A stretch of DNA of 64,000 bases from Clostridiales bacterium. GTDB lineage: Bacteria; Bacillota; Desulfotomaculia; Desulfotomaculales; VENG01. The stretch lies in assembly GCA_016278505.1 (NCBI GenBank), contig JADQBQ010000036.1, positions 1 through 64,000 on the forward strand. The letters run 5' to 3'. Position numbers and translations under genes: made by a program. The notes under the pieces were generated by a model. That model was given only the letters and a program-made list of their open reading frames with translations, made no database searches and was not told where the DNA came from. Below are positions 1,041-45,324 of this stretch, one piece after another; the stretch's first letter is position 1, and the number at the start of each line of letters is the position of its first letter.

Positions 1041-1727
1041 ATGAAAAGAGCAATAGTAGTTTTATCCGGAGGATTAGACAGCACTGTTTGCATGTCCGTG
1101 GCAGAAAAAGAAGGCTATCAAATCTATCCATTAACATTTGCCTATGGCCAGCGGCATAGCAAAGAAGTGGAGCAGGCAAAGAAAGTGGCTGAATTCTATG
1201 GCTGCAGTAATAGGCACCTTATTGTTAATACTGACTTTTTTAGGGACATCGGCCATAGCGCACTTACAGCTAATGAGATAGACGTACCTACAGATAGAGG
1301 GCTGGACCAGATGGACAAGGATGTCCCAGTAACCTATGTACCCTTTAGAAACGCAGTCTTTTTATCCATGGCCACCGGCTATGCAGAGGCTGCAGGCGCA
1401 GAAAAAATATACATTGGAGTTAATGCCCTAGACTATTCGGGATATCCCGACTGCCGCCCACAGTTTATTGATGCCTTCCAGGAGGCGGTAAACAAGGGGA
1501 CTGCGGCAGCAGACCAGGGGGTGCCCATTAAAATTGAAACACCCTTACTTAACCTTTCTAAGGCAGGGATCGTCAAATTGGGGATAAAAAATAAATCCCC
1601 CCTGCACCTAACAACCAGCTGCTACCAGGGGGGAGAAACGGCCTGTGGGAAATGCGACTCCTGTCAGCTTAGGCTAAAAGGCTTTAGCGAGGCCGGAGTT
1701 GAAGATCCCATTGAATATGAAGTGTAG
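1041..1727 (+). CDS. queC: 7-cyano-7-deazaguanine (preQ0) synthase QueC
   Basis: LSGGLDSTVC PP-loop, TFAYGQRH, C-terminal CYQGGETACGKCDSCQLR zinc motif; GGAGG RBS just upstream of the ATG at 1041. Confidence 0.97.
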   Translation: MKRAIVVLSGGLDSTVCMSVAEKEGYQIYPLTFAYGQRHSKEVEQAKKVAEFYGCSNRHLIVNTDFFRDIGHSALTANEIDVPTDRGLDQMDKDVPVTYVPFRNAVFLSMATGYAEAAGAEKIYIGVNALDYSGYPDCRPQFIDAFQEAVNKGTAAADQGVPIKIETPLLNLSKAGIVKLGIKNKSPLHLTTSCYQGGETACGKCDSCQLRLKGFSEAGVEDPIEYEV

Positions 1728-1753
1728 AATACCTTTAATTTGAGACCTTCCCT

Positions 1754-2437
1754 TTACTTGATGCCCAGCAATACGTGTAGCTGCGGCAATACTTTAACAT
1801 TATCATCAAAGCCAGGGTCGGAAGAAACCTTTTCAATAAGCCAATTCAATACCGGCAGGGGATCTCCCGTAGTGCAGGCCTGCAGGGTAAGAGGGCAGGA
1901 TTTATACTCCTGGTGTACTTTCTTGGCATACAGATAGTCTTCGTCTGTACCAATTACTATTTTGAGTTCCTTTGCCGCCACACTACTCATAAATTTGTCA
2001 AAGGATGAAAGCTCAGTTATGTTGCCGGAGCTAGGAGGTTTCGGCGATATACACACATGGTCCACACTGTACAGCCATGAAGGTATTATTGACCCCTGAG
2101 TTTCTATATGTATTTTATAATTTTCTTGTTTAAGCAGGCTAACTAGCCTGCTCAAGTCATGGATACAGGGATTTCCTCCCGTAATAGTCACCCTTTTGGT
2201 AATCCCCCCGGCCTCACCGCTTATTAATTGTACGATCTCTTCCTCGGTTAATTCATACCGGGCCTGCTTTATACTTTGGGCATGCAGGGTATCACACCAA
2301 GAGCACCGATAATCACATCCTGCCATCCTAAGAAACATGGTGCGGTGCCCACAATACATCCCCTCACCTTGGATGGTAGGCCCAAAGACCTCATACACAG
2401 AAATCCTAGACATCGGCCGCATATACCTCCACAGCAC
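1754..2437 (-). CDS. queE: 7-carboxy-7-deazaguanine synthase QueE (radical SAM)
   Basis: FGPTIQGEGMYCGHRTMFLRMAGCDYRCSWCDT: QueE N-terminus with a CxxxCxxC-type radical SAM motif. Confidence 0.95.
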   Translation of the reverse strand: MLWRYMRPMSRISVYEVFGPTIQGEGMYCGHRTMFLRMAGCDYRCSWCDTLHAQSIKQARYELTEEEIVQLISGEAGGITKRVTITGGNPCIHDLSRLVSLLKQENYKIHIETQGSIIPSWLYSVDHVCISPKPPSSGNITELSSFDKFMSSVAAKELKIVIGTDEDYLYAKKVHQEYKSCPLTLQACTTGDPLPVLNWLIEKVSSDPGFDDNVKVLPQLHVLLGIK

Positions 2438-2762
2438 TTGTAGGCGTTTCCCATAGCTTTATCTTGTGAAGTATTGGCAGCTGCGACTGAAGTGATCGGC
2501 AAATCCAAACTGCTATGTTTTCAGCAGTAGGTATGCAGGGCAAAACGTCATTCAGATAGCAGTGATCTAACCTGCTGACAGCATTTTCTTTAACTATTCG
2601 CTTAAGGTCATAAAAGTCCATGACCATGCCTGTCTCAGGGTTTATTTCACCTTTCACAGTCACCTCTAGCCTATAGGTATGGCCATGAATATTTCTGCAG
2701 TGGCCCGGGTAATTCGGCAGGCTGTGGGCGCTGTCAAACGTGAATACCTTTGTAATTGCCAT
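2406..2762 (-). CDS. queD: 6-carboxy-5,6,7,8-tetrahydropterin synthase QueD
   Basis: FTFDSAHSLPNYPGHCRNIHGHTYRLEV...MVMDFYDLK...LDHCYLND...PTAENIA; start trimmed to MAITKVF from the 2825 ORF start. Confidence 0.95.
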   Translation of the reverse strand: MAITKVFTFDSAHSLPNYPGHCRNIHGHTYRLEVTVKGEINPETGMVMDFYDLKRIVKENAVSRLDHCYLNDVLPCIPTAENIAVWICRSLQSQLPILHKIKLWETPTSAVEVYAADV

Positions 2763-2787
2763 AATGTTTTGGCTTGTCAAGAAAGCT

Positions 2788-3498
2788 TCATCCTTTCTGT
2801 TCATAACTAGTCGTTTCTTCCGCAATATTCAATTCCATGGTATAAATATGAATTCCTATGCGCGACTGGCACTTTCGCTCTAATGGGCATCCCGGACACC
2901 GGGGCCTTGCCCGGCAGTGGGCTGATCCTAAGTCAAGTAGGGCATAAAAAAACTGCCTGGACCTTCCCCGCGGGCACTGCTCTAAGGCAGCCGCAGCAAG
3001 CTTTCTTATATCCCCCGGGGTAGCATCCGGCAGGCAAAAAAACCTAGACATAATTCTGATTATATTTACGTCCGGCATGGGTGCCGGCTTGCCGTATGCA
3101 AAAACCATAACGGCCCCGCCCACATAAGGGCCCACATGCGGCAGGTCCAATAGCTTATCTAACTTTTTGGGAACCGTGCCGCTGTGCCTCTTTATCAGGG
3201 CCTGGGAAAGCTGAGCCAAGGCCTTACTCCTCTGTCCCCAAAGACCTAGCGGCCTTACATACTCTATAATTTCACTCTCGCCTGCCTCAGCCATATCCTG
3301 GGGAGTGGGATATCTTTTATATATTTCAGGGAAAATTTTGGCTACAGTTGGGCCATCTGTCCTCCGTAAAAGCATTTCTGCAAGCAAAATGCCCCAGGCA
3401 GTTATGTCCTGGGACCTCCACGGATAATTTCTATAGTTTTGCTCATGCCACTTTCTTAGCTTGTTCCACATGTAGCGTGATTTAGCCATGAGTGTCAC
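2788..3498 (-). CDS. HhH-GPD superfamily DNA glycosylase with [4Fe-4S] cluster (MutY/MIG-like, lacks MutY C-terminal domain)
   Basis: LPHVGPYVGGAVMVFAYGKPAPMPDVNIIRI helix-hairpin-helix plus catalytic Asp; CRARPRCPGCPLERKC Fe-S loop. Confidence 0.85.
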   Translation of the reverse strand: MTLMAKSRYMWNKLRKWHEQNYRNYPWRSQDITAWGILLAEMLLRRTDGPTVAKIFPEIYKRYPTPQDMAEAGESEIIEYVRPLGLWGQRSKALAQLSQALIKRHSGTVPKKLDKLLDLPHVGPYVGGAVMVFAYGKPAPMPDVNIIRIMSRFFCLPDATPGDIRKLAAAALEQCPRGRSRQFFYALLDLGSAHCRARPRCPGCPLERKCQSRIGIHIYTMELNIAEETTSYEQKG

Positions 3499-3932
3499 CT
3501 ATTCAAATACTTTTCACAAGACTTAAGAGCGGATACAAAATATGATCCTTTTTAAAGCCAAAACGAGGAAAGAGTCTCTATAATACTATTCGCTAAGCGG
3601 GCCGGCAATCCCCCTACAAATCATTTCTTTAAATACATTTCTTTAAATACACAGATAACGGATGTATTCTTTTATACGTCTTAATAATTTGCTCTAAAGA
3701 GGGTCCGGCGCTGTTCGCAACCTGAACCCACCATTTACTTCCGATACGCCCTATCGATGCCAGCAATAGTCCCGCCGACACTTACCTGTAACTTCTCAAT
3801 CAAACTAGTGATTTCATTAAATGCAGAATGAAAATTACAAAATCGTGTTTTTTTAGGGAGGATATTGGGACATTATGGCTAAATCTATATTAGAATAAAC
3901 CTCCTAGGGAGGTAAGGGATGGAAGGTAAAGA

Positions 3933-5815: not shown

Positions 5816-5982
5816 AACGTTACCTAAACTTTAAAATTATGTCCTTTCCATTTACAACTGTGTACTTGATTATTTAGTTGCAGCTAGATATAAGAAACTA
5901 GCCCATTACAGATAGCACCCACACCTTTAAAAACTTAATGTCATAGCTTTAATGATCTATATTACACCAAGCACCCATCCTT

Positions 5983-7604: not shown

Positions 7605-7682
7605 AACCCATGTCCGTCCCGGCAGTTAAACAAGCTAAATGACTGGTTTTACCCCTTAGGGATGTAACTGGGGCAATTCTAA

Positions 7683-8111: not shown

Positions 8112-8268
8112 ATTCCTCCTTGAGCCAAATTTTCAGCCCTTAAATGATTTAGCACTGCAAAAACCGGACATTGTTTAGGATTTCACAAAAATGTGCATCC
8201 CCCTGCAATAAATCAGAAATTTTTTTAGATGTTTTTGTTTTTAGCCGCGCTCTTCGTTTATACTAATT

Positions 8269-10638: not shown

Positions 10639-10648
10639 TTACATTCCC

Positions 10649-11218
10649 TCAGCTCAATAATTTTTTTAAGGCCGGATATAACTTCGCAAACTCATCCGTG
10701 GGCATCTCATCTATTAACATTTGGCACTCCCTTTTTCTTTGGCCCGCCCCAGCAGGCTTAAGCTCCAGGAAAAGGGGTGCCTGTGTTAAATCTTCTTCTT
10801 CGCTGAGCCCAAAGTATTCACTTATCTTTTTCAAATTACTTTTTTCAGGCATTTGCCCCCGCTTAACCCAATTGTTCACTGTGGTTGGGTCAATTTTAGC
10901 CCGCCTTGCAAATTCGGCCTTTCCCCTAGGAATAAGACTAAAAAGGTAAGAGATGTTTTCCCTTAAAAAATTTATACCATAGTTATCTAATAAATCGCCA
11001 TGATATATTTCGGCAACTTCGAAATAAAATGCAGACGCTATTTGAGTTATTTCTTTATTGGAGGGCACATCTTTTTTTAATAAAAAGGTTGTTATCCTTT
11101 CCTGTGGCACCCCCGCCCGGCGGGAAAAAATATCAAGCGCCTTTTCCCTCGACATATTGTAATCTCTTTCTTTACATGCCCACAGTAAAACATGTAGATT
11201 CTGCAACAATTTGTCCAT
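10649..11218 (-). CDS. Helix-turn-helix (XRE-like) transcriptional regulator
   Basis: FARRAKIDPTTVNNWVKRGQMPEKSNLKKISEYFGL is a Cro/CI-like HTH; lies between divergent helicase genes. Confidence 0.7.
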   Translation of the reverse strand: MDKLLQNLHVLLWACKERDYNMSREKALDIFSRRAGVPQERITTFLLKKDVPSNKEITQIASAFYFEVAEIYHGDLLDNYGINFLRENISYLFSLIPRGKAEFARRAKIDPTTVNNWVKRGQMPEKSNLKKISEYFGLSEEEDLTQAPLFLELKPAGAGQRKRECQMLIDEMPTDEFAKLYPALKKLLS

Positions 11219-11330
11219 AATTTTACCTCACACTGTCATAAAAAGGTTAGACCTGGCCCCTAATACATACTATAATATTGCATAAGTAGGTATTTAGGCA
11301 AACAAATACATCGTTTAAACGCATAATTGT

Positions 11331-13820: not shown

Positions 13821-13866
13821 CATAAAAATAATTTCACGTAAGAATAAAGAAAAGGGGGTAGGCGCT

Positions 13867-14742
13867 ATGTCTAAATATACCTACCAGGAAATAAACGGGC
13901 GCCGCCAGGGAGTTATTCAAACAGCCCGGGGGTCGATTCACACGCCAACATTTTTCCCAGTTACCACCTTTGGTGAAAAATACCCACTAGACCAGCTTGT
14001 CCAGCCATACTTAAAGCGACTTTCCCAGTGCATAATGGTAAGCTACCACTATGCACAGAAAATGAAAGAGCGGCCAGACATGCCTATGTTTATTGACTCC
14101 GGCGGCTTTGCCAGCCTTTTCGAAAGAGTACAAATAGCAGAGCACAAAGACTGTGCCAGCATCAAAACTAAAGACGGGGAAGAGATACACCCGCTGCAGG
14201 TAATAGAATTTCAGGAAGAGCACGCAGATTTGGCTGCTACCCTGGACTTTATTATTACCCCCCGCATGGATAAGGCTGAGGCCCGGCGCAGGCAGAAATT
14301 AACTATTAAAAATGCCTTCTATGCCCTAAAGCAAAAACGCTCTAAATCGCTGTTTTTATATGCCTCCCTACAGTGCTGGGACGAGAAGTCAGCCCGGGAG
14401 TGTGCCCGTGAATATGCCCGTGCTGGATTTGACGGTATTGCTATAGGTGGATTAGTTCCTAGGGCACGGGATGGAGAGTTTATTAAACAAATTGTTAGTA
14501 CTGTCCGAGAGGAGGTATCAGACTTAGCAGTTCACACCTTTGGTTTGGGTAACCCGAATGTGCTTAAGACTTTATGGAATCTAAAAACAGATTCCTCTGA
14601 TTCAAGTTCTTATATAAGAAAATCCATAGGGACAACTCACCTTGAGAAACCTCTTCCATTTTGGAATCGGCAACTAAATAGTCCTCATGCAGATCTCATT
14701 TCAGTTATAAGTAACCTTTGGCACTTAAATTATATGTATTGA
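13867..14742 (+). CDS. Divergent tRNA-guanine transglycosylase-fold paralog lacking the usual zinc site
   Basis: GVIQTARGSIHTPTFFPVTTFG (TGT N-terminus), FIDSGGFASLF (DSGGF motif), GFDGIAIGGLVPRARDG; no CxCxxC near the C-terminus. Confidence 0.8.
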   Translation: MSKYTYQEINGRRQGVIQTARGSIHTPTFFPVTTFGEKYPLDQLVQPYLKRLSQCIMVSYHYAQKMKERPDMPMFIDSGGFASLFERVQIAEHKDCASIKTKDGEEIHPLQVIEFQEEHADLAATLDFIITPRMDKAEARRRQKLTIKNAFYALKQKRSKSLFLYASLQCWDEKSARECAREYARAGFDGIAIGGLVPRARDGEFIKQIVSTVREEVSDLAVHTFGLGNPNVLKTLWNLKTDSSDSSSYIRKSIGTTHLEKPLPFWNRQLNSPHADLISVISNLWHLNYMY

Positions 14743-24386: not shown

Positions 24387-24411
24387 AAAAGGCCGGAATC
24401 TCCGGCCTTTA
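24387..24411 (-). terminator. Rho-independent terminator overlapping the dpdA stop codon
   Basis: Minus strand AAAGGCCGG-AGATT-CCGGCCTTTTT: perfect hairpin followed by T-run. Confidence 0.75.
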
Positions 24412-30078: not shown

Positions 30079-30080
30079 AG

Positions 30081-32591: not shown

Positions 32592-32594
32592 GGC

Positions 32595-33161
32595 CTACAC
32601 CCCCATTCCCGGAAAGGCCACTTTATTTTTGTTACTTTCCCAAATGGAATGGGCATGCTGGGCCAGCTCCTCCACCTTTTCCTGCTCAGAAAAGTAAACG
32701 GCAAACTCTTTATAGTTAAAAACACCGTTATGGGTTATGTTTGGAGAGCCCACCATTGCCCCTGCGCGGCCGGCGTAAATCTTAGCATGCAGGTCACTGA
32801 AAAGGCTAACTTGTAATAAGTTATTATGATCGGACCTTTCCAGCTGCTCCAAAAAGTCTAAAGTTCCAGTCTCTGACGCCTCCCCGGTGCCGGCACAGAG
32901 GGAGGCCACCTTTACTTTGCCACCCATCTCCAGCATTTTTCGCATCAAATCTAGCAAAGAAACCTGGCCGCCCGAAAATAAGTTGGAAAAAATGTTTCGC
33001 CCGCCCATATCAAAGGAAACATCACTAATCCAAGGGCTGATAAGGTAAAAGGTGTATTCACCGCCGCCCCGGCAGGCTAACAGCTCGTTAATAAAAAAAT
33101 TAGCAACTGCCTGATTAAAATTGATGTCTACTGCACTATTTAAAAATCTCAGCACGATCAC
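32595..33161 (-). CDS. dpdK: Phospholipase D-like protein DpdK
   Basis: LHAKIYAGRAGAMVGSPNITHNG: PLD HxK...GSxN motif; directly downstream of the dpdJ-like helicase. Confidence 0.75.
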   Translation of the reverse strand: MIVLRFLNSAVDINFNQAVANFFINELLACRGGGEYTFYLISPWISDVSFDMGGRNIFSNLFSGGQVSLLDLMRKMLEMGGKVKVASLCAGTGEASETGTLDFLEQLERSDHNNLLQVSLFSDLHAKIYAGRAGAMVGSPNITHNGVFNYKEFAVYFSEQEKVEELAQHAHSIWESNKNKVAFPGMGV

Positions 33162-36100
33162 CCCTTATACCTAAGGCCCGCTCATAAATCAGTCCCTCTG
33201 GACCGGAAAGATAAAGTTCTATCTCTTCATCACCCAAAATTTCTACCTCAAAGGTTTCTCCGGTAGGGAGCGTAACCCCGCTGTCCAGCAAATGTGATAT
33301 CGCCCGGTCTACGATTCCATGCTGGGCCAGGCTGTACCGCAGTAATACTTCCTGGTTCATCCGCTGGGTAAACGCCCTTTGAATTTTACGGGCCAATTTT
33401 GTATTGGAATCTTCAGCATCAACTTCAACGACACTGCCGCTCTCAGTAGTGCGCCAGTAATCAAGCATTTCCCTCAGCAGCCTGCGGCTAAGCATAAGCT
33501 GCGACAGCCCAGGGGACTCAAGCTCACAGGGCCCGGCCAGGCAGGTGGGGCAGATGTCAGGGCAAGTATTTAAAACTCTCTGACGTATTGCCCTTTTTAT
33601 CCTGTCAGATACCATTAAACCTTCTAAAATTGCTTTATAGTTCTGGTCAGTGCGCTGTCCGGCAGGGCCCAGAAGCTCATAGTACACATAGGCCAGCGAA
33701 AAGCCTTCTACGGTGTCAAATGCCCCCTGAGAAAAGTCCTTTACGTTTTCCCTATTTAGGTGGTCCCGCGGTTGGCCCTCTAGGTGTTCATCAAATATTT
33801 CCTCTAATTCATCTATTCGTTCCTCTTCCTCCATATTAATTAGCCTTTCAATGTCCTTTTTACTTTTAATGTTGGCAAACAAGACCGTGTAAAATGGCTT
33901 TTTGCAATTAGTTTCAATTGTTGCCCAACGCGCCTCTGTATCATCCTTCTTTTGATTCTGGTAGCATTTTAGCAGTACCAGCCAGGGGCTGTGCCGGGGA
34001 TCAGCTACCTCCCCTTGCTGTAAGCGCCCCTGAATCCGGGCGGCAAACAGCTCACCCACTTCGTGGGTAGTAAGCGCACGCCCCCAGCTCTCCTCTCTCT
34101 CTATCCTAAACAAATCCACCTCTCGGAACAGCCGCCAGTTTTCCAAGACCTGCCCGGAAAACTCTGATAGATCTAGCGAATTAGCAAATATGCGTCGCAG
34201 TGCCTTTAATCGCTGCCCAAGGGGACTTAGGCCTAGTTTCTCACGGAAATAGCCCTCAATCTCAAACTTTATTTTTCTCCGGCTTTTAATATCAGTGCTG
34301 TCGGCAAAGCTTTGAACAAGGTCACCTATATTTTTAAGGTGCTCCCCGGGAAGTGAGAGCAAAGTCCTTAAGAACTCTTCCTCATCCCCAAGCTGACAGT
34401 GCTGGATGGCCCGAATAACTTCCCGCCAAAATTCTCTCGGCCGCCCCTCAATTTTGCGCTGCACGGCCCTCATGCTGCCGGCCCCGTACATGCCGTACTC
34501 AAAAAGGTCGATCACCGGCTGAATGTCGCCAGGAAAATCAACAGAAAGCCTGGCCCAGGCCCCCATTTCGGAAAACGCCTCCACACCGGCAACAGACTGA
34601 TAGGCATTCTTAAGTGCATGCTTGAGGGAGTGAATCAATATATCCCTTACCACCTCGTAGCCAGGCGTTTTTTGCGCCTGGCGCCAGGTATTTACCAGCT
34701 CGCTGCGCACCTGCTCATTTTCAAGCAGGTTTATGATTTCCTCCCCTTTATCCTTGGAGAAGCGGTAATAGCTATCCAGTACTTCTTTTAGGGTGCCCTG
34801 ATACCTACCCTCTGCCAGGGCACTGCACCAGTCCTCCCCCTCATCCTTCTGGATCCCGATCCATGTTTGCAGTACTTCCAGCATATTTTTTATGGCAAAG
34901 AAATTGCCCCATTCATTTTCTTGGGCCAGGCGGTGGACTTTATATAAAAAGAAATTATCTTTAAGCTGCCTCATTAGATGCTGGCTGGGCTGAAAGCGCC
35001 GGTGTAGCTGTGGGTCCAGCTCAAACCGCAGGCCGTCCGTAGACATCTTATACCCCAGGCCCGCAAAATTTCTTTCTCTGTCCCTAAAGGCAATGCGGCG
35101 GGAAACCTGCTGGCCATCACACAGAAGGCCGGCCTCGGCACCCAGTGTGACTTTGGTTACCTCCATAAACCCGGATTTATCGTTGGCGGGAATTATGCGC
35201 GTAATGGCACCTGCCAGTGGCCCTAGCTTTTGCTGGTCGTCCCAAACTACACTTTGCCTGGGCAGGCGCACCTGATACGTAATAATTGGATAGGTATTGG
35301 AGCGCTGCGATACTCTTAGCCGCTCACCAATCTTTTCAAACTCTCCCCGCTCCTTAAATTTATCCTGTAGCGGATCATAAACCCACCTGTTAATTCTTTT
35401 CCCGTCTTTGTTATAGAAGAAGGTACGCAATGATACCCCTTGGGGGCGTAAAACCGGCAATTCATCTTGTATACTGCGCCCCATAAGCAGACTTTGCCAC
35501 TTGAGGGGCACCTCGGCCCTCTCCAAGGTGCCCTCCTTACTTCCTATTTGCCAGTAGTTTTCCATTGGCAGTGTATAGCATGTAGGCAGGTGCCTCTCCA
35601 ATAATTCAGGGGGAACCCACATGGCCTGCTCCCACCTGTAGGTTACCTTGCCCACCATGGTCTCCTGCAGCCCTATATCTATTCTTTCCTTTACACTGCT
35701 GCCGCCCCACTTTATTTCTATCTCCGGGAGGTTAATGTCGTTAAACAAGGCTGAGGGCAGGTAGTGATTCATTATAACCTTGACGTCACCCTGGCCTTTT
35801 TTAGATAAATAGCGAACCAGTCTGGGCAAGGCATGGCTAAGGACGCCCCTCGGGCCTGAGACAACTCTTCCTAAGTCTTCTTTCCCACGTGCCCCGGCAA
35901 GGCACAGTGCCCAGGACAAATAATTGGTTAAGGCATTCTTTTGACCCGGCGCGGCTGTTAACTTTATACAGTTTTTATACCATACATTGTTGGCCAGGGG
36001 AAAGAAGGCCCGCGTTATTCCCCGCAAGGCCATCTCATAGGCCAGCCAGTCAAATACAGCATATAGACCGTGAATACGCTGCACCAGTAAATTGTTTGGA

Positions 36101-38847
36101 TTAAGGGGCAGGCGCATAAAATTAGGGTCACTGAGTAGGTGATCATTATAAAAGTAAAAATTATCTTTATTGCGGTGCGGGCTTAATACATTTAACATAA
36201 TGGGGCGTGACCCCACAGAGCGGCCTGCACGCCCGCGCCGCTGCACAAAGCCGGCCAGGTCAGGGGGGGACAGGTACTGCAGAACTGCCATTAACTTATT
36301 ATAGTCATAGCCTACCTCGAGTGCCGACGTTGCCATCACCAGGTGATCTTGGGTATCAAACTCTCCACTCCATGCTGACTTAGCCACTGAGCGGATAGGG
36401 TCCTTAAGGGTGCGCCTCCGCCCCATCATCCACCAGCACTCACCCTCCCGGTATATCGGGCACTTTGGGTCTGGACTTTCTGAACATTTCCGGCAGTCTT
36501 CATTTACCGGCGTGACCATATATGACCGTAGCCGTTTACTCGTGCGAATGAGATCCGGGTGGCGCAAAAAGTGGAGTCCCTGGGCGTTCATTTCCGTATC
36601 TGGAATATTAATGTTTTGCCTTTCGGCATGCATCATTTGGTCCCGCCAGCGATAAAGGACGTCCCGGCTATTAACAAATCCAAATGTCTGGTAGAGCTCT
36701 CCCTCTGGGGGCTGTGCCATATTATGTATTAGGCACATGGCCGCCTGAATCATAGCTGACAGCACCGCACCACTGCGGGAGGCCTGTAGCAATATTAAGT
36801 ATTCCGCCCCCCTTATGGTCATTTCCTCAGGGTCAAGTGGTGATTCTACCGCAATGCGCTGCCTGATTCCCGTTAAGTCCTTAAAGAACCTTCTAGGCTC
36901 ACTAATGGTAGCGCTGAGGCCAATTACCTGTATGCGCGCCTGTACACCACTACGGTACTGGTGATACCGTATGCGCTGCAAAAGTCTGCGAATCAAGAAG
37001 CCCACCTGCATCCCTTTAATGGAAGACTGCAGGTGGATTTCATCCAACATTACAAACCGCGGGCTGCAATATCCGCCAATGCCAAAAATGCTTTGGTGGG
37101 CAGGGCTATTTAGGCGGTTGTTAAGGGACTCTGTTAGGGCAACCAGAATATCTGGAGGGGCGGCAGCCCAATCTTCTTTGGTTAGAATAACAAAGTCCAG
37201 GCCATTCGACACCTCACAGCCCGGGCCTGAGCAAACCAGCTGGCCAAATTGAGGGTGGTCTTGGGCAAGAGGGGTATATAGTGGCTTACCACACGCGGGG
37301 CAGGTGGTGTAGGGGCAAATATGACCTTCTAAGTTATTTTCATAAGGCCAATTGCGCTTTTTCATCTTGTCCTGCTTGGATAAGTGGGCCCTAAGATACG
37401 GCGTGTTACCATATTCCATTCCTACGGTAATGGCTCTCTTAATGCCCTTACTCTTCAATGCCCTATTGATCAGAAAGGCATAGCGAACAAATTCTTCAAA
37501 CTGGTTTTCTGCCAGCTTTGTGCGTGGGTACAGGGCAAGTAGCTTAGTGCCTAGTACTGCCTCTGCATAAAAGACCTTTTCTAAAATGACCTTTAAAAGG
37601 GCCGGGGCAAAAAAGGCGAGGGTTTTCCCAGAGCCTGTGCCGGCCGAAATTACGAGCCCCTCATCCCTGGTATCACTATTTATAGTATAGGACTTGCCAA
37701 ATATATGCTTGAAGCTGCGCCTTTGAAACTCACTGAATTTTGTGCGATCATTTTCCTTTAGGGCGTAGCTTAATATGTCCCGTGCTTTCTCTAATAACGC
37801 ACTGTCTTCCACTTTGGCTAATAGAACATCGTTTGTACCTGTTCTTAAAAATTTTTCTAACGTAATATCTCGTGCCGGGATGTGCCGGGCCCTCACATGA
37901 TACTTAATATCTTCGGCCAGCGGGCTGCTCTCATAATAGTACCTTTGGTCTGGAAAGCGCTGCCTCAAGCTATTAAGCAGGCGAACCACCTCGCCCATGC
38001 GGCTCCTAAGGCGCCAGGCGCCTGGCTCACCGGCGTCATTGAGAGGTATCACAAGCCCTTCTTCCCTTAAAAGCCGAAGGGCTGTCTCTTTATATATATC
38101 GTAATAGTCAAATTCAGCTACAGCACGGTCATGAAAAGATTCCATTAGATCAGACCCAGTGGTAGTGGTATCAAAAAAGCCATATTGGGCGTATTTTGCC
38201 TCTTCGACTTCCAAGTGTGTTAACAGTTTGTCTTTTGTGAGCCCTACCTGCTCTTCAACTTCATACCAACGCTCACCCTCACTTTTCCACGCCAGCTGAT
38301 TCATCAGCTCTTCAGGTAGAGTAATATCTTCAAGGCCTTGCCGCCAGATACGCAACCCTCCGCTTTCACCGGCTGAGCAAGATTTTACCAATAAATCGAT
38401 AGCCCGGGACCGCACCTCATCATTAACTACATCCCCTGGCTTAGTAATAGAAATATTACCTTCACGGGCCTGAAGTTCATTAACATTACCTTTTGCGGAT
38501 TTCGTTTTGTTGGGGCCACTTTTTTTTGATTGCTTCCCAGCCTGCCGCGGATTGTCCCTGCCCCTGCTTTTATCCATTGCTTTTGGCCTTTCCAAAAAGG
38601 GGGCTAAATCCTCTTTAGAATTATTGCCTATAGGAGGAAGTCCCCAATCAGCGTTTCTACTATCTACTGCCCAAAGGGAAGGCGCGGGAGAGATAATCCC
38701 ATCCACTGAATTTAAAATCTTCTCCAACTCATCATCACTAATAACAACGATAGCCGGGAGTTTACTTCGAATATCTTTCAAAGTTGCGGGACGATCAATG
38801 TTTTCTAAAATATGTAGCAAAGAAGTACGTAAATTTTCCCACTGCAT
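33136..38847 (-). CDS. dpdJ: DpdJ-like DEAD/DEAH-box helicase (1903 aa)
   Basis: VISAGTGSGKTLAFFAPALL, MLDEIHLQSS, IGLSATISEP, FVQRRGRAGRSVG; Cys clusters CPYTTCPACGKPLYTP and CPDICPTCLAGPC. Confidence 0.75.
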   Translation of the reverse strand: MQWENLRTSLLHILENIDRPATLKDIRSKLPAIVVISDDELEKILNSVDGIISPAPSLWAVDSRNADWGLPPIGNNSKEDLAPFLERPKAMDKSRGRDNPRQAGKQSKKSGPNKTKSAKGNVNELQAREGNISITKPGDVVNDEVRSRAIDLLVKSCSAGESGGLRIWRQGLEDITLPEELMNQLAWKSEGERWYEVEEQVGLTKDKLLTHLEVEEAKYAQYGFFDTTTTGSDLMESFHDRAVAEFDYYDIYKETALRLLREEGLVIPLNDAGEPGAWRLRSRMGEVVRLLNSLRQRFPDQRYYYESSPLAEDIKYHVRARHIPARDITLEKFLRTGTNDVLLAKVEDSALLEKARDILSYALKENDRTKFSEFQRRSFKHIFGKSYTINSDTRDEGLVISAGTGSGKTLAFFAPALLKVILEKVFYAEAVLGTKLLALYPRTKLAENQFEEFVRYAFLINRALKSKGIKRAITVGMEYGNTPYLRAHLSKQDKMKKRNWPYENNLEGHICPYTTCPACGKPLYTPLAQDHPQFGQLVCSGPGCEVSNGLDFVILTKEDWAAAPPDILVALTESLNNRLNSPAHQSIFGIGGYCSPRFVMLDEIHLQSSIKGMQVGFLIRRLLQRIRYHQYRSGVQARIQVIGLSATISEPRRFFKDLTGIRQRIAVESPLDPEEMTIRGAEYLILLQASRSGAVLSAMIQAAMCLIHNMAQPPEGELYQTFGFVNSRDVLYRWRDQMMHAERQNINIPDTEMNAQGLHFLRHPDLIRTSKRLRSYMVTPVNEDCRKCSESPDPKCPIYREGECWWMMGRRRTLKDPIRSVAKSAWSGEFDTQDHLVMATSALEVGYDYNKLMAVLQYLSPPDLAGFVQRRGRAGRSVGSRPIMLNVLSPHRNKDNFYFYNDHLLSDPNFMRLPLNPNNLLVQRIHGLYAVFDWLAYEMALRGITRAFFPLANNVWYKNCIKLTAAPGQKNALTNYLSWALCLAGARGKEDLGRVVSGPRGVLSHALPRLVRYLSKKGQGDVKVIMNHYLPSALFNDINLPEIEIKWGGSSVKERIDIGLQETMVGKVTYRWEQAMWVPPELLERHLPTCYTLPMENYWQIGSKEGTLERAEVPLKWQSLLMGRSIQDELPVLRPQGVSLRTFFYNKDGKRINRWVYDPLQDKFKERGEFEKIGERLRVSQRSNTYPIITYQVRLPRQSVVWDDQQKLGPLAGAITRIIPANDKSGFMEVTKVTLGAEAGLLCDGQQVSRRIAFRDRERNFAGLGYKMSTDGLRFELDPQLHRRFQPSQHLMRQLKDNFFLYKVHRLAQENEWGNFFAIKNMLEVLQTWIGIQKDEGEDWCSALAEGRYQGTLKEVLDSYYRFSKDKGEEIINLLENEQVRSELVNTWRQAQKTPGYEVVRDILIHSLKHALKNAYQSVAGVEAFSEMGAWARLSVDFPGDIQPVIDLFEYGMYGAGSMRAVQRKIEGRPREFWREVIRAIQHCQLGDEEEFLRTLLSLPGEHLKNIGDLVQSFADSTDIKSRRKIKFEIEGYFREKLGLSPLGQRLKALRRIFANSLDLSEFSGQVLENWRLFREVDLFRIEREESWGRALTTHEVGELFAARIQGRLQQGEVADPRHSPWLVLLKCYQNQKKDDTEARWATIETNCKKPFYTVLFANIKSKKDIERLINMEEEERIDELEEIFDEHLEGQPRDHLNRENVKDFSQGAFDTVEGFSLAYVYYELLGPAGQRTDQNYKAILEGLMVSDRIKRAIRQRVLNTCPDICPTCLAGPCELESPGLSQLMLSRRLLREMLDYWRTTESGSVVEVDAEDSNTKLARKIQRAFTQRMNQEVLLRYSLAQHGIVDRAISHLLDSGVTLPTGETFEVEILGDEEIELYLSGPEGLIYERALGIRGDRAEIFK

Positions 38848-39043: not shown

Positions 39044-39067
39044 CGAGGTAATAATTTTTTTATATTT

Positions 39068-42000
39068 TCATTCTTTAAAGATATAATTTAGTTTGATCTC
39101 CCCCGCCAGTGCGGATGACTTATCTTTTAGTTCTTTAATTGCATTTATCGGCACATCAGATAAAACAACGTAACCCCCGCGGGCCAATTCGGAAACTACT
39201 CTTGCAGCCCCCCTGCCCAAATCCATTTCGCTCATTATATCTTCGTAGCTTAGCCCCCTGAACGGATCGTCCCAGGCAATTTCCCGAAGGGCCCTGACTG
39301 CTTTACAAGCTAAGGCATTAGAACTTACATTAGTATCCAGATCCTTTAAGGCGTTTAATGCGACATCAACTTTCTCCGTTAATTGCTTGCGATTATCTTT
39401 GGCCAGCAAATCATTTATCTGTAGCAGCCGCGATAAATGGGTCCTCCAGGCCGCAATAACCTTTTTAACTTCTGCATTAGAATCGATCTCTTGCAGGGTA
39501 ATGGCGCAACTACTAATTTTCCCCTCAAGCTCAGCCAGGCTTTCGCCTGCATGATAATCTAGGCTGATTAATCTCCTTAGTGAGCTCAGAAAATTTCTTC
39601 CCTCTGACGCCAGTGCCAAGGAATCTTCACTAGTCCCCGGCAATGTCTGTCCCCCCGGGCAAAGGCCAGAAATAATTTTGGAGAACCGAACCGCTTCTTG
39701 GATTTGATCTTTTTCCAAGTGTTTGGCAACACGATTTATAGTAAAAAGATATTCTTTTACAAATAGGTATTTTCTGGCCAGTTCAATATTCTCTAATATT
39801 AACTCAGCACCGCTAAATGAGCACTTCTTACCTGTAACTAATATTTTTTTTGCGTGTCGCTGAAGGGCTACCCCCGCAACACTTCTTACTGGCAGTGCCC
39901 CGGCCATTTCCAAAAGCTCACCTTTTATCTCTGGCGCATAAGATACCAAGCTATCACTACCAAGCGTCAAAACATCACGCAAATTTTTCATAGTGGGGTC
40001 CTGTTCAATTTCTGACAGGGCTAAAAAGGCATGGTGGATTTGCATAGGAGGTAGACTTAGCACAGATGTGGAATTACTCGCAATTTCATTACCAATATAT
40101 TGAGTAAGTTTTCTATACAGCCTTCCGCACTGCCTTTTACTGGGTAACTGTCGAAAATTCTGCTCTTTTAGGGTTTCAGATAGGTCACCAAGCCCGGAGG
40201 AAAGGACCTCATACATTCCAGGACTTTGAATATCCTGCAGTAGCAGGGCCAACCTTGAAATCTCGTTCAAGTAAGACTCTACCCTTGCACTATTTAACAA
40301 CTTAAGCGATTCTTTTACTTTTTGCCTAATCCCTAATAAAAGATCGCTTAAAGGGCGCCCGTTTATTTTATACTGACTACTGATATTTTCAGGCTGAATT
40401 CCCTGTATTTTGGTAAACAAATCTTGGCCCGAGTATTTTTTTTCTAAAATACTTAATGTGAATCCATCATAAACATTCTCCCGAAGTAAAAACCAATCCT
40501 TAAAAGCATCCGTGACGAAATCTACTTCCTCCGGGCTGAATTCGACAACATCAACTGTTAGCCCTTGGGGATATCGCTCTCTTATCCACATTAGCCGGTA
40601 TTGTGCTAGTATTGCAGGTATCTCCTCAATCTGAGAAGTATACTGAATCATAAAGAGAAATAAAACATATATCGCTTCATCAACAGGCATTTTTAATTCT
40701 TCGCCCAAGTTATTAACCCATGTTTTTCTTAGCCCCCGGGCCCTGTAGGCCACCCTATAAGATGGCCCAGCTGCACACAATTTGTCCAAGGCCAGCTCTT
40801 TAGTCTTACTTTTTTTTAAATGAAGGTAATGTAGCTCGTATGCAGCATGTCCAATCGACCTCTCTAATGGAATACCGGAGTATTCATCGACTTCCTCTAG
40901 ATGTATGGGGATTTTGCTTCCATCTAGTGCCTCCTCCCGTTTAATCACCGCAGGAGGGCGGGCAGTGTATTCCCTTGAAATGCTTCCGGGCTGGGCAATT
41001 TCGCGGCAAAAGTGAGCGGCACCCAGGCGCAGCCCCCGCAGTAACTCCTTATTGACTTTATTCTCCTCCAGCCAGTCTCTTATTGCCTCCCTGGGCCCAT
41101 AATAGGTCTCAAAGGAGTCTTCTTCTATATAAGGTGCTTCCTCTGTTTGCCCCCCTTTGGGCCTTATATCGCCCAGGGTAGCTAAACTAACTTTAATATC
41201 GGGCTCAAGAATATCATTTCCCCTCAAAAGACTAATAGCTAAACCGGGAACAGTAATATCTCCTTCAGAATCCCCCACAGGGGAAAAAATCTCGGCTAAA
41301 ACCTTGATATGTTTATCTTCGTGATCTGCATCTATTTCGCGCCTAACAAGTGAGGCTAACAAATGTAGACTTTCCCCCGAAATCAGCCTCTGAATAACCT
41401 CTCCTAAGGCCATAATAAAATAGCGCGCCTTTCCCTTACCCCGGGGCAAAGAGTTAAACATCCTATGTAGAACCGCAGGATTAAAGGGGGCAAGGGCAGC
41501 ATCAGGTGCCATGTCAAACTGCAGGGCCTGACATTTTTCATAGCTGTCGCACCCTGGGCCACAGCTAAAGCCCCCTTGACCCTTAAGCTCCAATAAATAT
41601 TTCTTAGCGTAATCACTGCAATTTTCTGCATTAATAAAAAACGATTCATGCCCCTGTTCGTCGGTTAGCCACAATTTAATTAATCGGTCGTCAAAAGTAT
41701 CAAGGTATGTAATTCTCTTTAACAACTCACGCCCGCGCCTACTTGCCTCAAAAGAAGAAGGCGTTAGGCCCACCACAATATCCCAGCACCCTTCCTCCAT
41801 AGTTATAAAATAATCTAAAATATCGGAGGCATAAAGGTTCATTGACTGTACGAGGTCGTCAACAAGCAGTACAGGCCGGCAACTAGTTTCTTGGGCAACT
41901 TCAAAGCTAACAGACTTAAGAACGTCGACAAAGTGGAATCCGCCCATGATCATTTGCTCCATCTCATGAACCATCATCGAGCGGATTTGCTCATAATCAA

Positions 42001-42700
42001 TATTAACTGGAAAAGCACACTGATCAGCCAGCTGTTCCAGCTCTTCTACTGAAATAAGTTCCAAGTTACGCCCACCGATTTCACTTGGGCCCTCAATGGC
42101 ACCAAAATTCTCTTTAAGGTTTGCTTCTATAATTGGCCGCAGCTTGTAGCTTAGAGGAATTATTTGGCTATCATCCGAAAGTAGGCGGCAGAGTGCCGAC
42201 CATACTAGGTGATTAGCGAGGGTGACAGGCTTTTTGCGGAGGTCATCCCACCGGTGAACCGTATTAGTATCTATACCTATACCACTAAACTGATGCAGAA
42301 TTTTTTGTAAGATCCTCACAGGGTCCAGCTCTGTCCTAGATATTCTTACATAATGATTTTTTCTTTCACCGCTAGACTTAAGATTACACTCTATCCAGCG
42401 CATAAGCTCTGATTTTCCAGATCCCGCGGCCCCGTAGAGCACATACACCCTATTACCCTGAACAGCCCCCTTCTGCTTTGTAAGATGCTTTATTAACTCC
42501 CCTTCTGTCCATGGGCTATTAGGCTTTCCATCCCTAAACCTTCGCAGTGTTATGGGATAGTGAGTTTTAAGGAATATGTCCTCCCCGATCATAAAACGCT
42601 GATCAGCAGTTACCGAAAATAAAGACATCCCCTTTTCATTTAGACAGGGTAACATTTTAACCGTCACACCTTTCAATCCATTTGACTTCCCGCCCCCCAA
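39068..42700 (-). CDS. dpdH: DpdH-like large P-loop ATPase (1210 aa)
   Basis: VLYGAAGSGKSELMRWIE Walker A, PVLLVDDLVQSMN Walker B; adjacent to the dpdG-like gene. True start may be near 42655 (MLPCLNEKG). Confidence 0.65.
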   Translation of the reverse strand: MGGGKSNGLKGVTVKMLPCLNEKGMSLFSVTADQRFMIGEDIFLKTHYPITLRRFRDGKPNSPWTEGELIKHLTKQKGAVQGNRVYVLYGAAGSGKSELMRWIECNLKSSGERKNHYVRISRTELDPVRILQKILHQFSGIGIDTNTVHRWDDLRKKPVTLANHLVWSALCRLLSDDSQIIPLSYKLRPIIEANLKENFGAIEGPSEIGGRNLELISVEELEQLADQCAFPVNIDYEQIRSMMVHEMEQMIMGGFHFVDVLKSVSFEVAQETSCRPVLLVDDLVQSMNLYASDILDYFITMEEGCWDIVVGLTPSSFEASRRGRELLKRITYLDTFDDRLIKLWLTDEQGHESFFINAENCSDYAKKYLLELKGQGGFSCGPGCDSYEKCQALQFDMAPDAALAPFNPAVLHRMFNSLPRGKGKARYFIMALGEVIQRLISGESLHLLASLVRREIDADHEDKHIKVLAEIFSPVGDSEGDITVPGLAISLLRGNDILEPDIKVSLATLGDIRPKGGQTEEAPYIEEDSFETYYGPREAIRDWLEENKVNKELLRGLRLGAAHFCREIAQPGSISREYTARPPAVIKREEALDGSKIPIHLEEVDEYSGIPLERSIGHAAYELHYLHLKKSKTKELALDKLCAAGPSYRVAYRARGLRKTWVNNLGEELKMPVDEAIYVLFLFMIQYTSQIEEIPAILAQYRLMWIRERYPQGLTVDVVEFSPEEVDFVTDAFKDWFLLRENVYDGFTLSILEKKYSGQDLFTKIQGIQPENISSQYKINGRPLSDLLLGIRQKVKESLKLLNSARVESYLNEISRLALLLQDIQSPGMYEVLSSGLGDLSETLKEQNFRQLPSKRQCGRLYRKLTQYIGNEIASNSTSVLSLPPMQIHHAFLALSEIEQDPTMKNLRDVLTLGSDSLVSYAPEIKGELLEMAGALPVRSVAGVALQRHAKKILVTGKKCSFSGAELILENIELARKYLFVKEYLFTINRVAKHLEKDQIQEAVRFSKIISGLCPGGQTLPGTSEDSLALASEGRNFLSSLRRLISLDYHAGESLAELEGKISSCAITLQEIDSNAEVKKVIAAWRTHLSRLLQINDLLAKDNRKQLTEKVDVALNALKDLDTNVSSNALACKAVRALREIAWDDPFRGLSYEDIMSEMDLGRGAARVVSELARGGYVVLSDVPINAIKELKDKSSALAGEIKLNYIFKE

Positions 42701-43400: not shown

Positions 43401-43460
43401 GCAAGGTCACCACCTGACATTGTAATTTTTTCTTAATTAGCTATAATTTATTGTAATCAA

Positions 43461-44369
43461 TTGGTTGGAAAGGTGTTGTGCCAAGGTTTGCCTGAATTTT
43501 ATATGTCATGGGCCAGAAGTGATCCCTTATATCAAGAATATTTTTCAGACTGCCAATTACTTATTAGCCCGCAGTCTGTGAGGCATAGCTGGAGCTCTGC
43601 CGATTTTAAGCGGCAGCCGGCAAAGTTAATTATTGATAGCGGCGCCTACTGGTATATAAAAAACGACAGAAATCCCCCACCCCCAAAAGATGTTTTCTTT
43701 CGCCAGCAAAAGATGGCCGAGGGATCCCATTGCCCAACAACCATTTGCCATTTCGACATGCCGCTTCCCCCAAAGGAAAGTGAAATTGGTACTAGCTACA
43801 GGCGCATAGAGTCAACAATAGGGAACGCCTACGAATTCATGGAGCTATATACAAGGGCAAATTTTCCTTCAAATGTACAGTGTCTAGGTGTAATTCAGGG
43901 CTATGATCCTGCTTCAGTTAAATTCTGTGCCCAAGAGATAAGCCGAATGGGCTTTGACCGCTTCGGCCTCGGCTCCCTAGCAGGCCTATACTTTCCGGAA
44001 GAAATCATATCCCGGGTAAAGGCTGCCATAGAAATAGTAGGCACAAACCTCCATATTTTTGGTATTAGTAATACCAAACTAATGCTTAAGCTTTCAAAGC
44101 TGGGCATTAGCTCTTTTGATTCATCAAGGCCTATGCTGGCCGCAATATATAACACTGTTTTTTATAGTAAGCCCTTTAAGAGCTTTATTGTGGAAGAGGC
44201 AAAGAATAAGATAAGAAGAGGCTCAATTCTACAAGAGCCGCTCCCCTGTAGATGTCCTGTGTGTAAGGACAACCCATCTGTTTTAATGAGTACTGGAAGG
44301 AAAAAATATCACAACTTAAGGGCGGTACATAATTACTATCATCTTGTGCGTGAAATACGAGGTGATTAA
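43461..44369 (+). CDS. TGT-fold paralog with zinc site (DpdA/archaeosine-TGT-like)
   Basis: LIIDSGAYWYI, CHFDMPLPP, FGLGSLAGL, GISSFDSSRPM, CRCPVCKD...H zinc motif; divergent from dpdG with a ~60 bp shared intergenic region. Confidence 0.8.
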   Translation: MVGKVLCQGLPEFYMSWARSDPLYQEYFSDCQLLISPQSVRHSWSSADFKRQPAKLIIDSGAYWYIKNDRNPPPPKDVFFRQQKMAEGSHCPTTICHFDMPLPPKESEIGTSYRRIESTIGNAYEFMELYTRANFPSNVQCLGVIQGYDPASVKFCAQEISRMGFDRFGLGSLAGLYFPEEIISRVKAAIEIVGTNLHIFGISNTKLMLKLSKLGISSFDSSRPMLAAIYNTVFYSKPFKSFIVEEAKNKIRRGSILQEPLPCRCPVCKDNPSVLMSTGRKKYHNLRAVHNYYHLVREIRGD

Positions 44370-44371
44370 AA

Positions 44372-44392
44372 TCCCGGCCCAAAGGCCGGGAG
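44372..44392 (+). terminator. Hairpin after the 43461 TGT-like gene
   Basis: TCCCGGCC-CAAAG-GCCGGGA just past the stop; weak T-tract. Confidence 0.5.
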
Positions 44393-44409
44393 AATTCATG
44401 TTTATATAT

Positions 44410-44595
44410 CTAGCTCTTTTCCTCTTCTAGCAGCATGCCGCCCTTCAATAAATCCGCCAGTTCTTTTCGGGAAAGGGTGGCTGGAGAATTATATGTTCTG
44501 CACCCATACTGATACATACATACAGGACATCCGTCACGGCAAGAGCAGCTAAGATTACCAGAGGCAATTTTGATGGCCTCTGCAAAATAAGATTT
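44410..44595 (-). pseudogene. Relic of a helicase C-terminus with DUF1998-like Cys cluster
   Basis: Minus-strand reading: KPYLKSYFAEAIKIASGNLSCSCRDGCPVCMYQYGCRTYNSPATLSRKELADLLKGGMLLEEEKS*, open to an upstream stop with no start codon. Confidence 0.55.
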
Positions 44596-44628
44596 TAGGT
44601 ATGGCTTCTATTTTTTCCTCAGTAAATA

Positions 44629-44665
44629 AACATAACACCTTCGGCCGGAGAGAAGGTGTTATGTT
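44629..44665 (-). terminator. 14-bp perfect inverted repeat downstream of the transporter gene
   Basis: AACATAACACCTTC - 9 nt - GAAGGTGTTATGTT. Confidence 0.55.
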
Positions 44666-44676
44666 ATTTATATATC

Positions 44677-45324
44677 TTAATTATTAGCCAAATCTGCCTT
44701 GCCGCCCCGTATCCAATATATTAGGCCATAGAAAAATGGGGTGTTAAAAACGGTAATCCCCATCTTTACTAGGTACTGGCTAATAACCATATTTATTAGT
44801 GCAGCATTCGGGACTGCACCATAAAATGCAATGGTGATAAAGATTGAAGTATCAATGGCCTGGGACAAATATGTAGAGCCGTTATTTCTAAGCCAAAGGA
44901 AGCGTCCATTAGTTAGCCGCTTAATTGCTAAGAATGCCCATACATCGGTAAACTGCGACACCAAATAGGCAGCAATGCTCGCCCCTACTATTCTAAACGA
45001 TCCACTCAAAACTAATTGATAGGCCTCCTGACTGCCCCAGAACGGGGCTGCGGGCAAAAGAATACTTGCCTGCACCAGTACCACCATCAAAACATTCATG
45101 TAAAAGCCCATTATAACGACCCGCTTTGCCCTGTCCCGGCCCCATATTTCAGAAACGGCATCGGTCATCAAAAAGGTTAGGGAATAGCAAATAAAGCCTG
45201 CGGGCACAAAAAGGCCCCATAGATCTATTACCTTAGAGGCCGTTATGTTTGCCACGATTAGGGCTGTAATGTAAACGCTTAACACGGTATAAAACTTGTT
45301 TTCAAAATCTCGCAAATTTCGCAC
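44677..45324 (-). CDS. Queuosine precursor transporter (YhhQ/QPTR, VUT family)
   Basis: Multi-TM; ANITASKVIDLWGLFVPAGFICYSLTFLMTDAVSEIWGRDRAKRVV matches the YhhQ pattern. Confidence 0.9.
   Translation of the reverse strand: MRNLRDFENKFYTVLSVYITALIVANITASKVIDLWGLFVPAGFICYSLTFLMTDAVSEIWGRDRAKRVVIMGFYMNVLMVVLVQASILLPAAPFWGSQEAYQLVLSGSFRIVGASIAAYLVSQFTDVWAFLAIKRLTNGRFLWLRNNGSTYLSQAIDTSIFITIAFYGAVPNAALINMVISQYLVKMGITVFNTPFFYGLIYWIRGGKADLANN

What the first reader, a model, noticed from the sequence alone, without database searches (positions are those of the whole stretch)
1041..45324. Candidate extended Dpd-like 7-deazapurine modification/restriction island
Seen: queC/queE/queD, a DpdA-type transglycosylase, two more TGT-fold genes, dpdG/H/J/K-like genes and a preQ0-type transporter in about 44 kb. 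They are interleaved with HerA-NurA, two Ski2 helicases, twin dynamin-like GTPases, Mrr, UvrD plus Cas4-like nuclease, and two base-excision-type glycosylases. Knowledge: Dpd islands use queCDE-derived preQ0, DpdA insertion and a DpdD-K restriction arm. Inference: the extra modules form a larger composite or variant of the system. I could not recognise dpdB, a stand-alone dpdC, or dpdD/E/F/I by known signatures.
Basis: partly seen in the sequence, partly recalled or inferred. Interest (0 to 1): 0.92.

Follow-up and report, generated by a model that had tools for sequence, protein, structure and literature searches.

The report
Two-armed 7-deazaguanine DNA defence island
This bacterium carries an island that probably marks its own DNA with a swapped-in guanine analogue and attacks unmarked DNA, and about half of it is a conserved gene set, found in many phyla and not described in the papers I could search, that pairs the marking enzyme with a second enzyme of the same fold.

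Summary
The gene calls hold. Window 1029-45324 encodes queC/E/D, a preQ0 transporter, a true DpdA (fused to a DpdC-like DUF6884 domain), two more TGT-fold proteins and helicase/nuclease modules. A survey of relatives splits the island into parts.

Arm B (HelB-HTH-HelA-TGT2-X600-HerA-NurA-DpdA plus UvrD-PDDEXK) is a recurrent gene set in 22 genomes from about eight bacterial phyla and two cyanobacterial plasmids. DpdA passes its cut-off in 13 of 22 TGT2 genomes against 1 of 398 background genomes. None of those genomes has a full DpdJ or TGT3.

Arm A (TGT3-G'-H'-J'-K'-TPR) is separate. The canonical DpdE-F-G-H-I-J-K-D operon is also in this genome, but on another contig. DpdB is absent. On sequenced plasmids a second TGT and DpdB never occur together (12 vs 12, 0 both).

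I infer that TGT2 and TGT3 are catalytically intact partners or extra writers standing in for DpdB, each with its own ATPases, and that X600 is the fast-evolving sensor. The Leo dynamins and the UDG are passengers.

The parts
1029..1727 (+). queC, preQ0 synthase
   Evidence: PF06508 262 bits; TIGR00364 over cut-off
1754..2437 (-). queE, radical SAM 7-carboxy-7-deazaguanine synthase
   Evidence: TIGR03365 217 bits, over cut-off
2406..2825 (-). queD
   Evidence: PF01242 135 bits; TIGR03367 over cut-off
2788..3498 (-). MutY/Nth-like HhH-GPD protein; possible arm-A associate (also beside queC in G447), otherwise passenger
   Evidence: TIGR01084 127 bits, far below cut-off; 0 of 24 arm-B loci; frameshifted homologue in L128
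8269..10638 (-). arm B: HelB, Hel308-like SF2 helicase
   Evidence: DEAD + Helicase_C; 20 of 24 arm-B loci
10649..11218 (-). arm B: HTH189, small HTH_3 protein, likely regulator
   Evidence: PF01381; 18 of 24 loci
11331..13820 (+). arm B: HelA, Hel308-like SF2 helicase with HhH and SWIM domains
   Evidence: 23 of 24 loci
13867..14742 (+). arm B: TGT2, second TGT; catalytic residues intact, no C-terminal zinc site (ORF opens at 13786, likely start 13867)
   Evidence: PF01702 76 bits; residues conserved 28/28; start
14781..17174 (-). arm B: X600, fast-evolving ~600-aa family, here with a C-terminal Mrr nuclease domain
   Evidence: Mrr_cat 78 bits; family in all long loci by HMM, identity 24-25% to nearest relatives; AF2 model
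17447..19240 (-). arm B: HerA translocase
   Evidence: DUF87; 15 of 24 loci, 68-74% identity to nearest relatives
19254..20465 (-). arm B: NurA-like nuclease
   Evidence: 13 of 24 loci
24409..26436 (-). writer: DpdC-like (DUF6884) domain fused to DpdA
   Evidence: NF041059 496 bits; PF21818 and PADLOC DpdC at the N terminus; 7UI4 E=1e-92
26620..27738 (-). arm B: PD-(D/E)XK (Cas4/AddB-like) nuclease
   Evidence: PF12705; 13 of 24 loci
27754..30078 (-). arm B: UvrD-like helicase
   Evidence: PF00580 150 bits; 661-691 bits to several arm-B loci against 209 to the Scytonema arm-A homologue
30081..32591 (-). arm A: 836-aa TPR-type protein in the slot after DpdK (DpdD slot)
   Evidence: no family; weak match to the Scytonema protein in the same slot
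32595..33161 (-). arm A: DpdK-like PLD nuclease (K')
   Evidence: NF041068 56 bits, cut-off 100
33136..38847 (-). arm A: DpdJ-like YprA-family helicase (J')
   Evidence: NF041067 485 bits, cut-off 800; 601 bits to the Scytonema homologue
39068..42700 (-). arm A: H', large P-loop NTPase distinct from canonical DpdH
   Evidence: 382 bits to Paenibacillus pART37, 827 to G447; DpdH model 39 bits
42657..43400 (-). arm A: G', small partner of H'
   Evidence: 80 bits to Paenibacillus, 274 to G447
43461..44369 (+). arm A: TGT3, third TGT, zinc site retained
   Evidence: PF01702 55 bits; residues; only in window, pART37, D. taeanensis and G447
44677..45324 (-). preQ0/queuosine-precursor transporter (Vut_1)
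   Evidence: PF02592 178 bits, TIGR00697 192 bits

Best explanation
This is a composite DNA 7-deazaguanine modification-restriction island. Step 1 (families established, activity inferred): QueD-QueE-QueC make preQ0 and the Vut_1 transporter imports it. Step 2 (inferred from homology to solved DpdA): the TGT domain of the DpdC-DpdA fusion swaps guanine in host DNA for preQ0, and the fused DpdC-like domain hydrolyses it to the amide (dADG). Step 3 (shown as a gene pattern, function inferred): DpdB, the usual ATPase partner, is missing; its role is taken by second TGTs that come with their own ATPases, TGT2 with HelA/HelB and TGT3 with G'/H'. TGT2 and TGT3 keep the base-exchange residues, so they are most likely active partners or additional writers. 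Step 4 (inferred): unmodified DNA is recognised by arm-specific machinery and degraded. Arm B uses HerA-NurA, UvrD-PDDEXK and the rapidly evolving X600, here armed with an Mrr nuclease. Arm A uses the DpdJ-like helicase and DpdK-like PLD nuclease. A canonical dpdE-F-G-H-I-J-K-D operon on another contig would read the same mark. Arm B is a coherent system in its own right, widespread in bacteria.
For: Conserved gene set: in 24 loci from about eight bacterial phyla HelA 23, HelB 20, HTH 18, HerA 15, NurA 13, UvrD 13, PDDEXK 13, DpdA 15; in the 15 long loci HelA 15, HelB 15, HerA 14, DpdA 14. P. tyrfis has the window's order HelB-HTH-HelA-TGT2-X600-HerA-NurA-DpdA with queC nearby. DpdA over cut-off in 13/22 TGT2 genomes against 1/398 (Fisher p=4e-18). 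Full DpdJ and TGT3 in 0/22. Catalytic Asp pair, recognition Asp and Gln in 28/28 TGT2, zinc ligands lost in 27/28. DpdB and a second TGT exclude each other on DpdA plasmids (p=1e-5). Closely related cyanobacterial DpdAs switch between the two partners (tree). No DpdB in this genome. A plasmid with TGT2 alone beside DNA methyltransferases suits a writer. X600 is 24-25% identical to relatives whose HerA, DpdA and TGT2 are 57-74% identical. Canonical operon on C33.
Against: No chemical or phenotypic data exist here. The exclusion with DpdB is confounded by kinship (8 of 12 second-TGT plasmids are haloarchaeal), and for nine DpdB plasmids it rests on tblastn only. TGT2 is adjacent to the helicases, not to DpdA, which would also fit a restriction-side role. 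Nine of 22 TGT2 genomes have no DpdA over cut-off; several are broken MAGs, but L034 has queCDE beside TGT2 and no DpdA found. X600 has no significant structural match. The background for DpdA was drawn from the window's own phylum only.
Confidence: 0.55

Rival explanations
1. TGT2 and TGT3 are readers in the restriction arms. They flip out guanine at the target and discriminate G from the 7-deazaguanine, perhaps removing the unmodified base through the covalent Asp intermediate, and so license the helicases and nucleases; DpdA alone writes.
For: TGT2 directly follows or overlaps the helicase genes rather than the writer gene. The active-site residues are strictly kept although the zinc/dimer subdomain is lost. 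TGT3 is beside G'/H' and J'/K'. Base-excising restriction enzymes exist (PMC10273834).
Against: TGT2 alone or with HelB occurs on plasmids without nuclease arms nearby. The second TGT alternates with DpdB, which is a modification protein. Phage DpdA acts as a writer without DpdB (PMC6884629).
Confidence: 0.25
2. Chance composite: a defence hotspot in which unrelated systems (Dpd, a HerA-NurA helicase system, Leo, Mrr) piled up without functional links.
For: Leo, UDG and membrane genes are indeed absent from relatives. GC content is mosaic. Arms A and B were not seen together elsewhere.
Against: The same arm-B genes with DpdA recur in about eight phyla, with shared order in several loci and strong statistics. 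TGT3-G'-H' recurs in four genomes.
Confidence: 0.1
3. Arm B is primarily a DNA repair or replication module (Hel308/HerA/NurA/UvrD are repair families) that uses 7-deazaguanine as a strand mark rather than for restriction.
For: Families are archaeal-repair-like (HerA-NurA end resection, PMC12977600 abstract). Deinococcus plasmids carry TGT2-HelB, one of them near a ribonucleotide reductase gene.
Against: Patchy, often plasmid-borne distribution, a fast-evolving X600 with a fused Mrr nuclease, and association with the defence-type DpdA and queCDE.
Confidence: 0.1

Closest known systems
Canonical bacterial Dpd system (dpdA-C writer, dpdD-K restriction)
   Same: queCDE, preQ0 transporter, DpdA, DpdC-like domain (fused), J/K-like proteins in arm A; the full canonical E-F-G-H-I-J-K-D operon exists in the same genome on contig C33
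   Different: No DpdB; two extra TGTs with their own ATPases; arm B shares none of dpdD-K; the window's J/K/H/G are below the curated cut-offs
BRIGADE (haloarchaeal Dpd/ARMADA hybrid, PMC12458937)
   Same: DpdA-type writer with a second TGT and ATPases (Haloferax locus L010) and a YprA helicase
   Different: BRIGADE has two YprA helicases and is reported only from halophilic archaea; arm B has no YprA helicase. The terms TGT and transglycosylase do not occur in the text of that paper
BRC system (HerA + TGT + GNAT + BREX parts, PMC12839542)
   Same: HerA together with a TGT and no DpdB
   Different: BRC is defined by PglZ, DUF6079/BrxC-like, DUF4007 and a STAND NTPase; none found in the window
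DISARM
   Same: YprA-type helicase plus PLD nuclease resemble J'/K'
   Different: No DNA methyltransferase in the island
HerA-NurA (archaeal end resection / HerA defence systems)
   Same: HerA and a NurA-like nuclease as neighbours
   Different: Tied to TGT2, a Hel308-like pair, X600 and DpdA

Membership tests
Canonical Dpd | DpdA DNA-guanine transglycosylase | tested here: met
   496 bits, cut-off 200; 7UI4 E=1e-92; catalytic and zinc residues intact
Canonical Dpd | DpdB (DndB/DGQHR ATPase) partner | tested here: not met
   PF14072: no match in the whole assembly
Canonical Dpd | DpdC (DUF6884) for preQ0 to ADG | tested here: met
   Met as an N-terminal fusion to DpdA: PF21818 4.7e-8, PADLOC DpdC 7.5e-7
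Canonical Dpd | preQ0 supply queC/D/E | tested here: met
Canonical Dpd | Restriction operon dpdD-K inside the window | tested here: not met
   Only divergent J and K, distant H, no D/E/F/I; the canonical operon is on C33
Canonical Dpd | dPreQ0/dADG in DNA and restriction of unmodified DNA | not testable with these tools
   needs LC-MS/MS and transformation assays
BRIGADE | Two YprA-family helicases, halophilic archaeal host | tested here: not met
   One DpdJ-like helicase in the window; nearest homologues of TGT2 are in the bacteria Desulfosporosinus and Paenibacillus. YprA phylogeny not built
BRC | PglZ, DUF6079, DUF4007 | tested here: not met
   No such Pfam match in ORFs of the island or in the right-flank ORFs scanned
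DISARM | DNA methyltransferase with DrmA/B/C | tested here: not met
   No methyltransferase family among island proteins
Arm B (TGT2 system, proposed here) | HelA-TGT2-HelB with HTH, HerA-NurA, X600, UvrD-PDDEXK and DpdA | tested here: met
   All present in the window; matrix over 24 relatives

The most novel reading that the evidence does not exclude
Arm B is a new class of DNA modification-restriction system built on two different DNA-guanine transglycosylases: a zinc-less TGT2, powered by a pair of Hel308-like helicases, replaces the DpdB ATPase either by exchanging bases on unwound DNA itself or by reading the mark through base flipping. The same trick arose at least three times (TGT2, TGT3, haloarchaeal TGT).
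Probability: 0.35. Interest if true: 0.9.

Novelty: new variant of a known kind. Interest (0 to 1): 0.8.

Why it matters
If right, it adds a widespread branch to the few known systems that mark DNA with 7-deazaguanines and shows how DpdA can work without DpdB. It gives a compact, testable case: Picosynechococcus PCC 73109 carries arm B on a 38-kb plasmid. It also means that surveys requiring dpdAB (such as PMC11888242) or a YprA helicase (PMC12458937) would miss this class. I found no description of it in the open papers I could search; key Dpd papers were not held.

Tried and rejected
Arm B as a known system: rejected for BRC, DISARM and BRIGADE on defining genes. TGT2 as a phage enzyme: no TGT2 relative among 50,697 phage records or in a viral-contig scan. 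Leo dynamins, UDG and membrane genes as parts: no homologue in any relative. TGT2 as a truncated or dead gene: it is full length against relatives and all catalytic residues are kept. Haloarchaeal loci L039-L050 from the TGT2 scan look like housekeeping archaeal tRNA TgtA and its neighbour, not this system, and were set aside. X600 by fold: no significant PDB match, only weak similarity to PspGI/MspJI/NucS. The DpdA fold model is low confidence (pLDDT 66) and only re-finds 7UI4; it says nothing about the N-terminal domain. End overlap of C8 and C33: none found, so linkage of the canonical operon to the window is unknown. Primary Dpd papers (PMC4801273, PMC6207457, PMC10164549, PMC10966956) are not held.
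Full report
What is in the window. The writer is unmistakable: ORF 24409-26436 is DpdA over the curated cut-off (496 bits against 200), aligns over its C-terminal 390 residues with the solved DNA preQ0 insertase 7UI4 (E=1e-92), and carries an N-terminal DUF6884/DpdC-like domain. DUF6884 is named as the DpdC domain in PMC11888242. So the 'missing' DpdC is fused to DpdA. queC/E/D and the Vut_1 transporter supply preQ0. Two further TGT-fold genes exist, TGT2 (13786-14742) and TGT3 (43461-44369); the housekeeping tRNA Tgt is on another contig.

Arm B is a conserved gene set. A scan of 84,980 species genomes with a TGT2 alignment gave 22 bacterial loci whose record titles point to Bacillota, Cyanobacteria, Bacteroidota, Verrucomicrobiota, Planctomycetota, Acidobacteriota, Pseudomonadota and Myxococcota, plus cyanobacterial plasmids. 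Reading the loci and extending most of the long ones shows one recurring set: HTH, HelA, TGT2, HelB, X600, HerA, NurA, UvrD, PDDEXK, DpdA, queCDE. Counts over 24 loci, many cut by contig ends, are. Paenibacillus tyrfis has the window's order exactly: HelB, HTH (-), HelA, TGT2 (+), X600, HerA, NurA, DpdA (-). In the window only the Leo dynamin pair is inserted between NurA and DpdA, and UvrD-PDDEXK lies beyond DpdA. The window's UvrD scores 661-691 bits against several arm-B relatives but 209 against the Scytonema arm-A homologue, so UvrD-PDDEXK belongs to arm B. DpdA over cut-off is in 13 of 22 TGT2 genomes, usually within 16 kb, against 1 of 398 other genomes of the window's phylum (Fisher p=4e-18).

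Arm A is another system. TGT3 above 100 bits occurs in none of the 22 arm-B genomes. It occurs in Paenibacillus pART37 and Deinococcus taeanensis and in a genome of the window's own order, G447. There it heads a trio TGT3-G'-H' that sits beside canonical dpd genes and DpdA. In the window the trio is followed by J', K' and a TPR protein whose nearest match is the Scytonema plasmid set. J', K' and H' fall below the curated cut-offs, and G' matches nothing.

A third arm elsewhere. Searching the assembly with DpdE and DpdD found contig C33, and reading it showed DpdE 927, DpdF 924, DpdG 150, DpdH 878, DpdI 52 (below its cut-off of 150), DpdJ 1886, DpdK 194 and DpdD 541 bits in one operon, seven of eight over cut-off. 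No dpdA lies on the part read. The genome thus holds one DpdA, two further island TGTs, three putative restriction arms and no DpdB. Whether C33 adjoins C8, whose first base is the window's first base, is unknown.

The second TGT and DpdB. Of 26 plasmids with DpdA, 12 have a second TGT and no DpdB, 12 have DpdB and no second TGT, 2 have neither and none has both (p=1e-5). Relatedness inflates this: 8 of the 12 are haloarchaeal. But in the cyanobacterial DpdA clade the two states alternate among near relatives (Allocoleopsis and Scytonema with DpdB; Nostoc, Picosynechococcus and Pseudanabaena with TGT2; tree). Allocoleopsis and Scytonema also have the DpdC-DpdA fusion, so the fusion alone does not explain the loss of DpdB. 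Each second TGT comes with ATPases (HelA/HelB; H'; a BREX-type ATPase in Haloferax). This is why I favour a partner or additional writer over a reader.

TGT2 as an enzyme. All 28 TGT2 sequences keep the residues that align with the DpdA/TGT general acid Asp, the recognition Asp, the Gln and the nucleophile Asp; 27 lack the CxCxxC...H zinc site that DpdA, TGT3 and archaeal TGT keep. In TGTs this zinc subdomain is at the dimer interface (general knowledge, not tested), so TGT2 probably pairs differently. TGT2 alone on a Nostoc plasmid among DNA methyltransferases, and with HelB on Deinococcus plasmids, resembles the single DpdA writers that phages use (PMC6884629).

X600. The protein downstream of HerA belongs to one family in all long loci, in the distant ones only by profile. 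It is 24-25% identical between the window and Desulfosporosinus or Paenibacillus, while HerA, DpdA, TGT2, HelA and NurA are 52-74%. It is duplicated in several loci and fused to an Mrr nuclease only in the window. Its model is confident over most of residues 11-610 but has no significant structural match. Its evolution suggests the sensor or specificity part; this is inference.

What is not part of it. LeoA/LeoB, the UDG-family protein and the small ORFs at 3933-8111 occur in no relative. The MutY-like gene occurs beside queC in G447 only, with a frameshift there.

Known or new. No held paper that I found describes HelA-TGT2-HelB-HerA-NurA with DpdA. The nearest are BRIGADE, BRC and canonical Dpd, each failing on tested features. 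The primary Dpd papers and the 2013 base-modification survey that I recall (Iyer et al.) were not readable here, so priority is not established. I file it as a new variant of the Dpd kind.

Noticed in passing
own genome contig C33 (L133:1963-19788): Complete canonical dpdE-F-G-H-I-J-K-D operon in the same genome, outside the window and without dpdA on the part read.
   Followed up: yes
window 20651-24251: LeoA/LeoB-like dynamin pair (PADLOC 1e-98, 2e-80; GC about 0.36-0.37) nested between NurA and DpdA, absent from all relatives: probably a separate defence system inserted in the island.
   Followed up: partly
window 52535-55726: 1063-aa protein with an HD-CE domain plus a weak HSP90-like ATPase match, possibly another defence gene.
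   Followed up: no
L034 (Verrucomicrobia MAG) 7437-13352: HelA-TGT2 followed by queD/E/C, no DpdA found in the genome, and the only TGT2 that keeps the zinc cysteines.
   Followed up: partly
L011:15974-16909 (Nostoc MS1 plasmid): TGT2 alone in a stretch with dnaB, an MT-A70 methyltransferase, AlkB and a cytosine methyltransferase, possibly an anti-restriction gene.
   Followed up: partly
L010:20004-26062 (Haloferax pBNX82-4) and seven other haloarchaeal plasmids: A second TGT on the same plasmid as the DpdA relative; the text of the BRIGADE preprint does not mention a TGT.
   Followed up: partly
L131, L132, L105 (same-order genomes): DpdA of about 564-590 aa directly beside UvrD-PDDEXK on short contigs, perhaps a smaller Dpd variant.
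   Followed up: no
window 3933-5815: Two adjacent proteins with hydrophobic segments and no family, at low GC (0.335).
   Followed up: no
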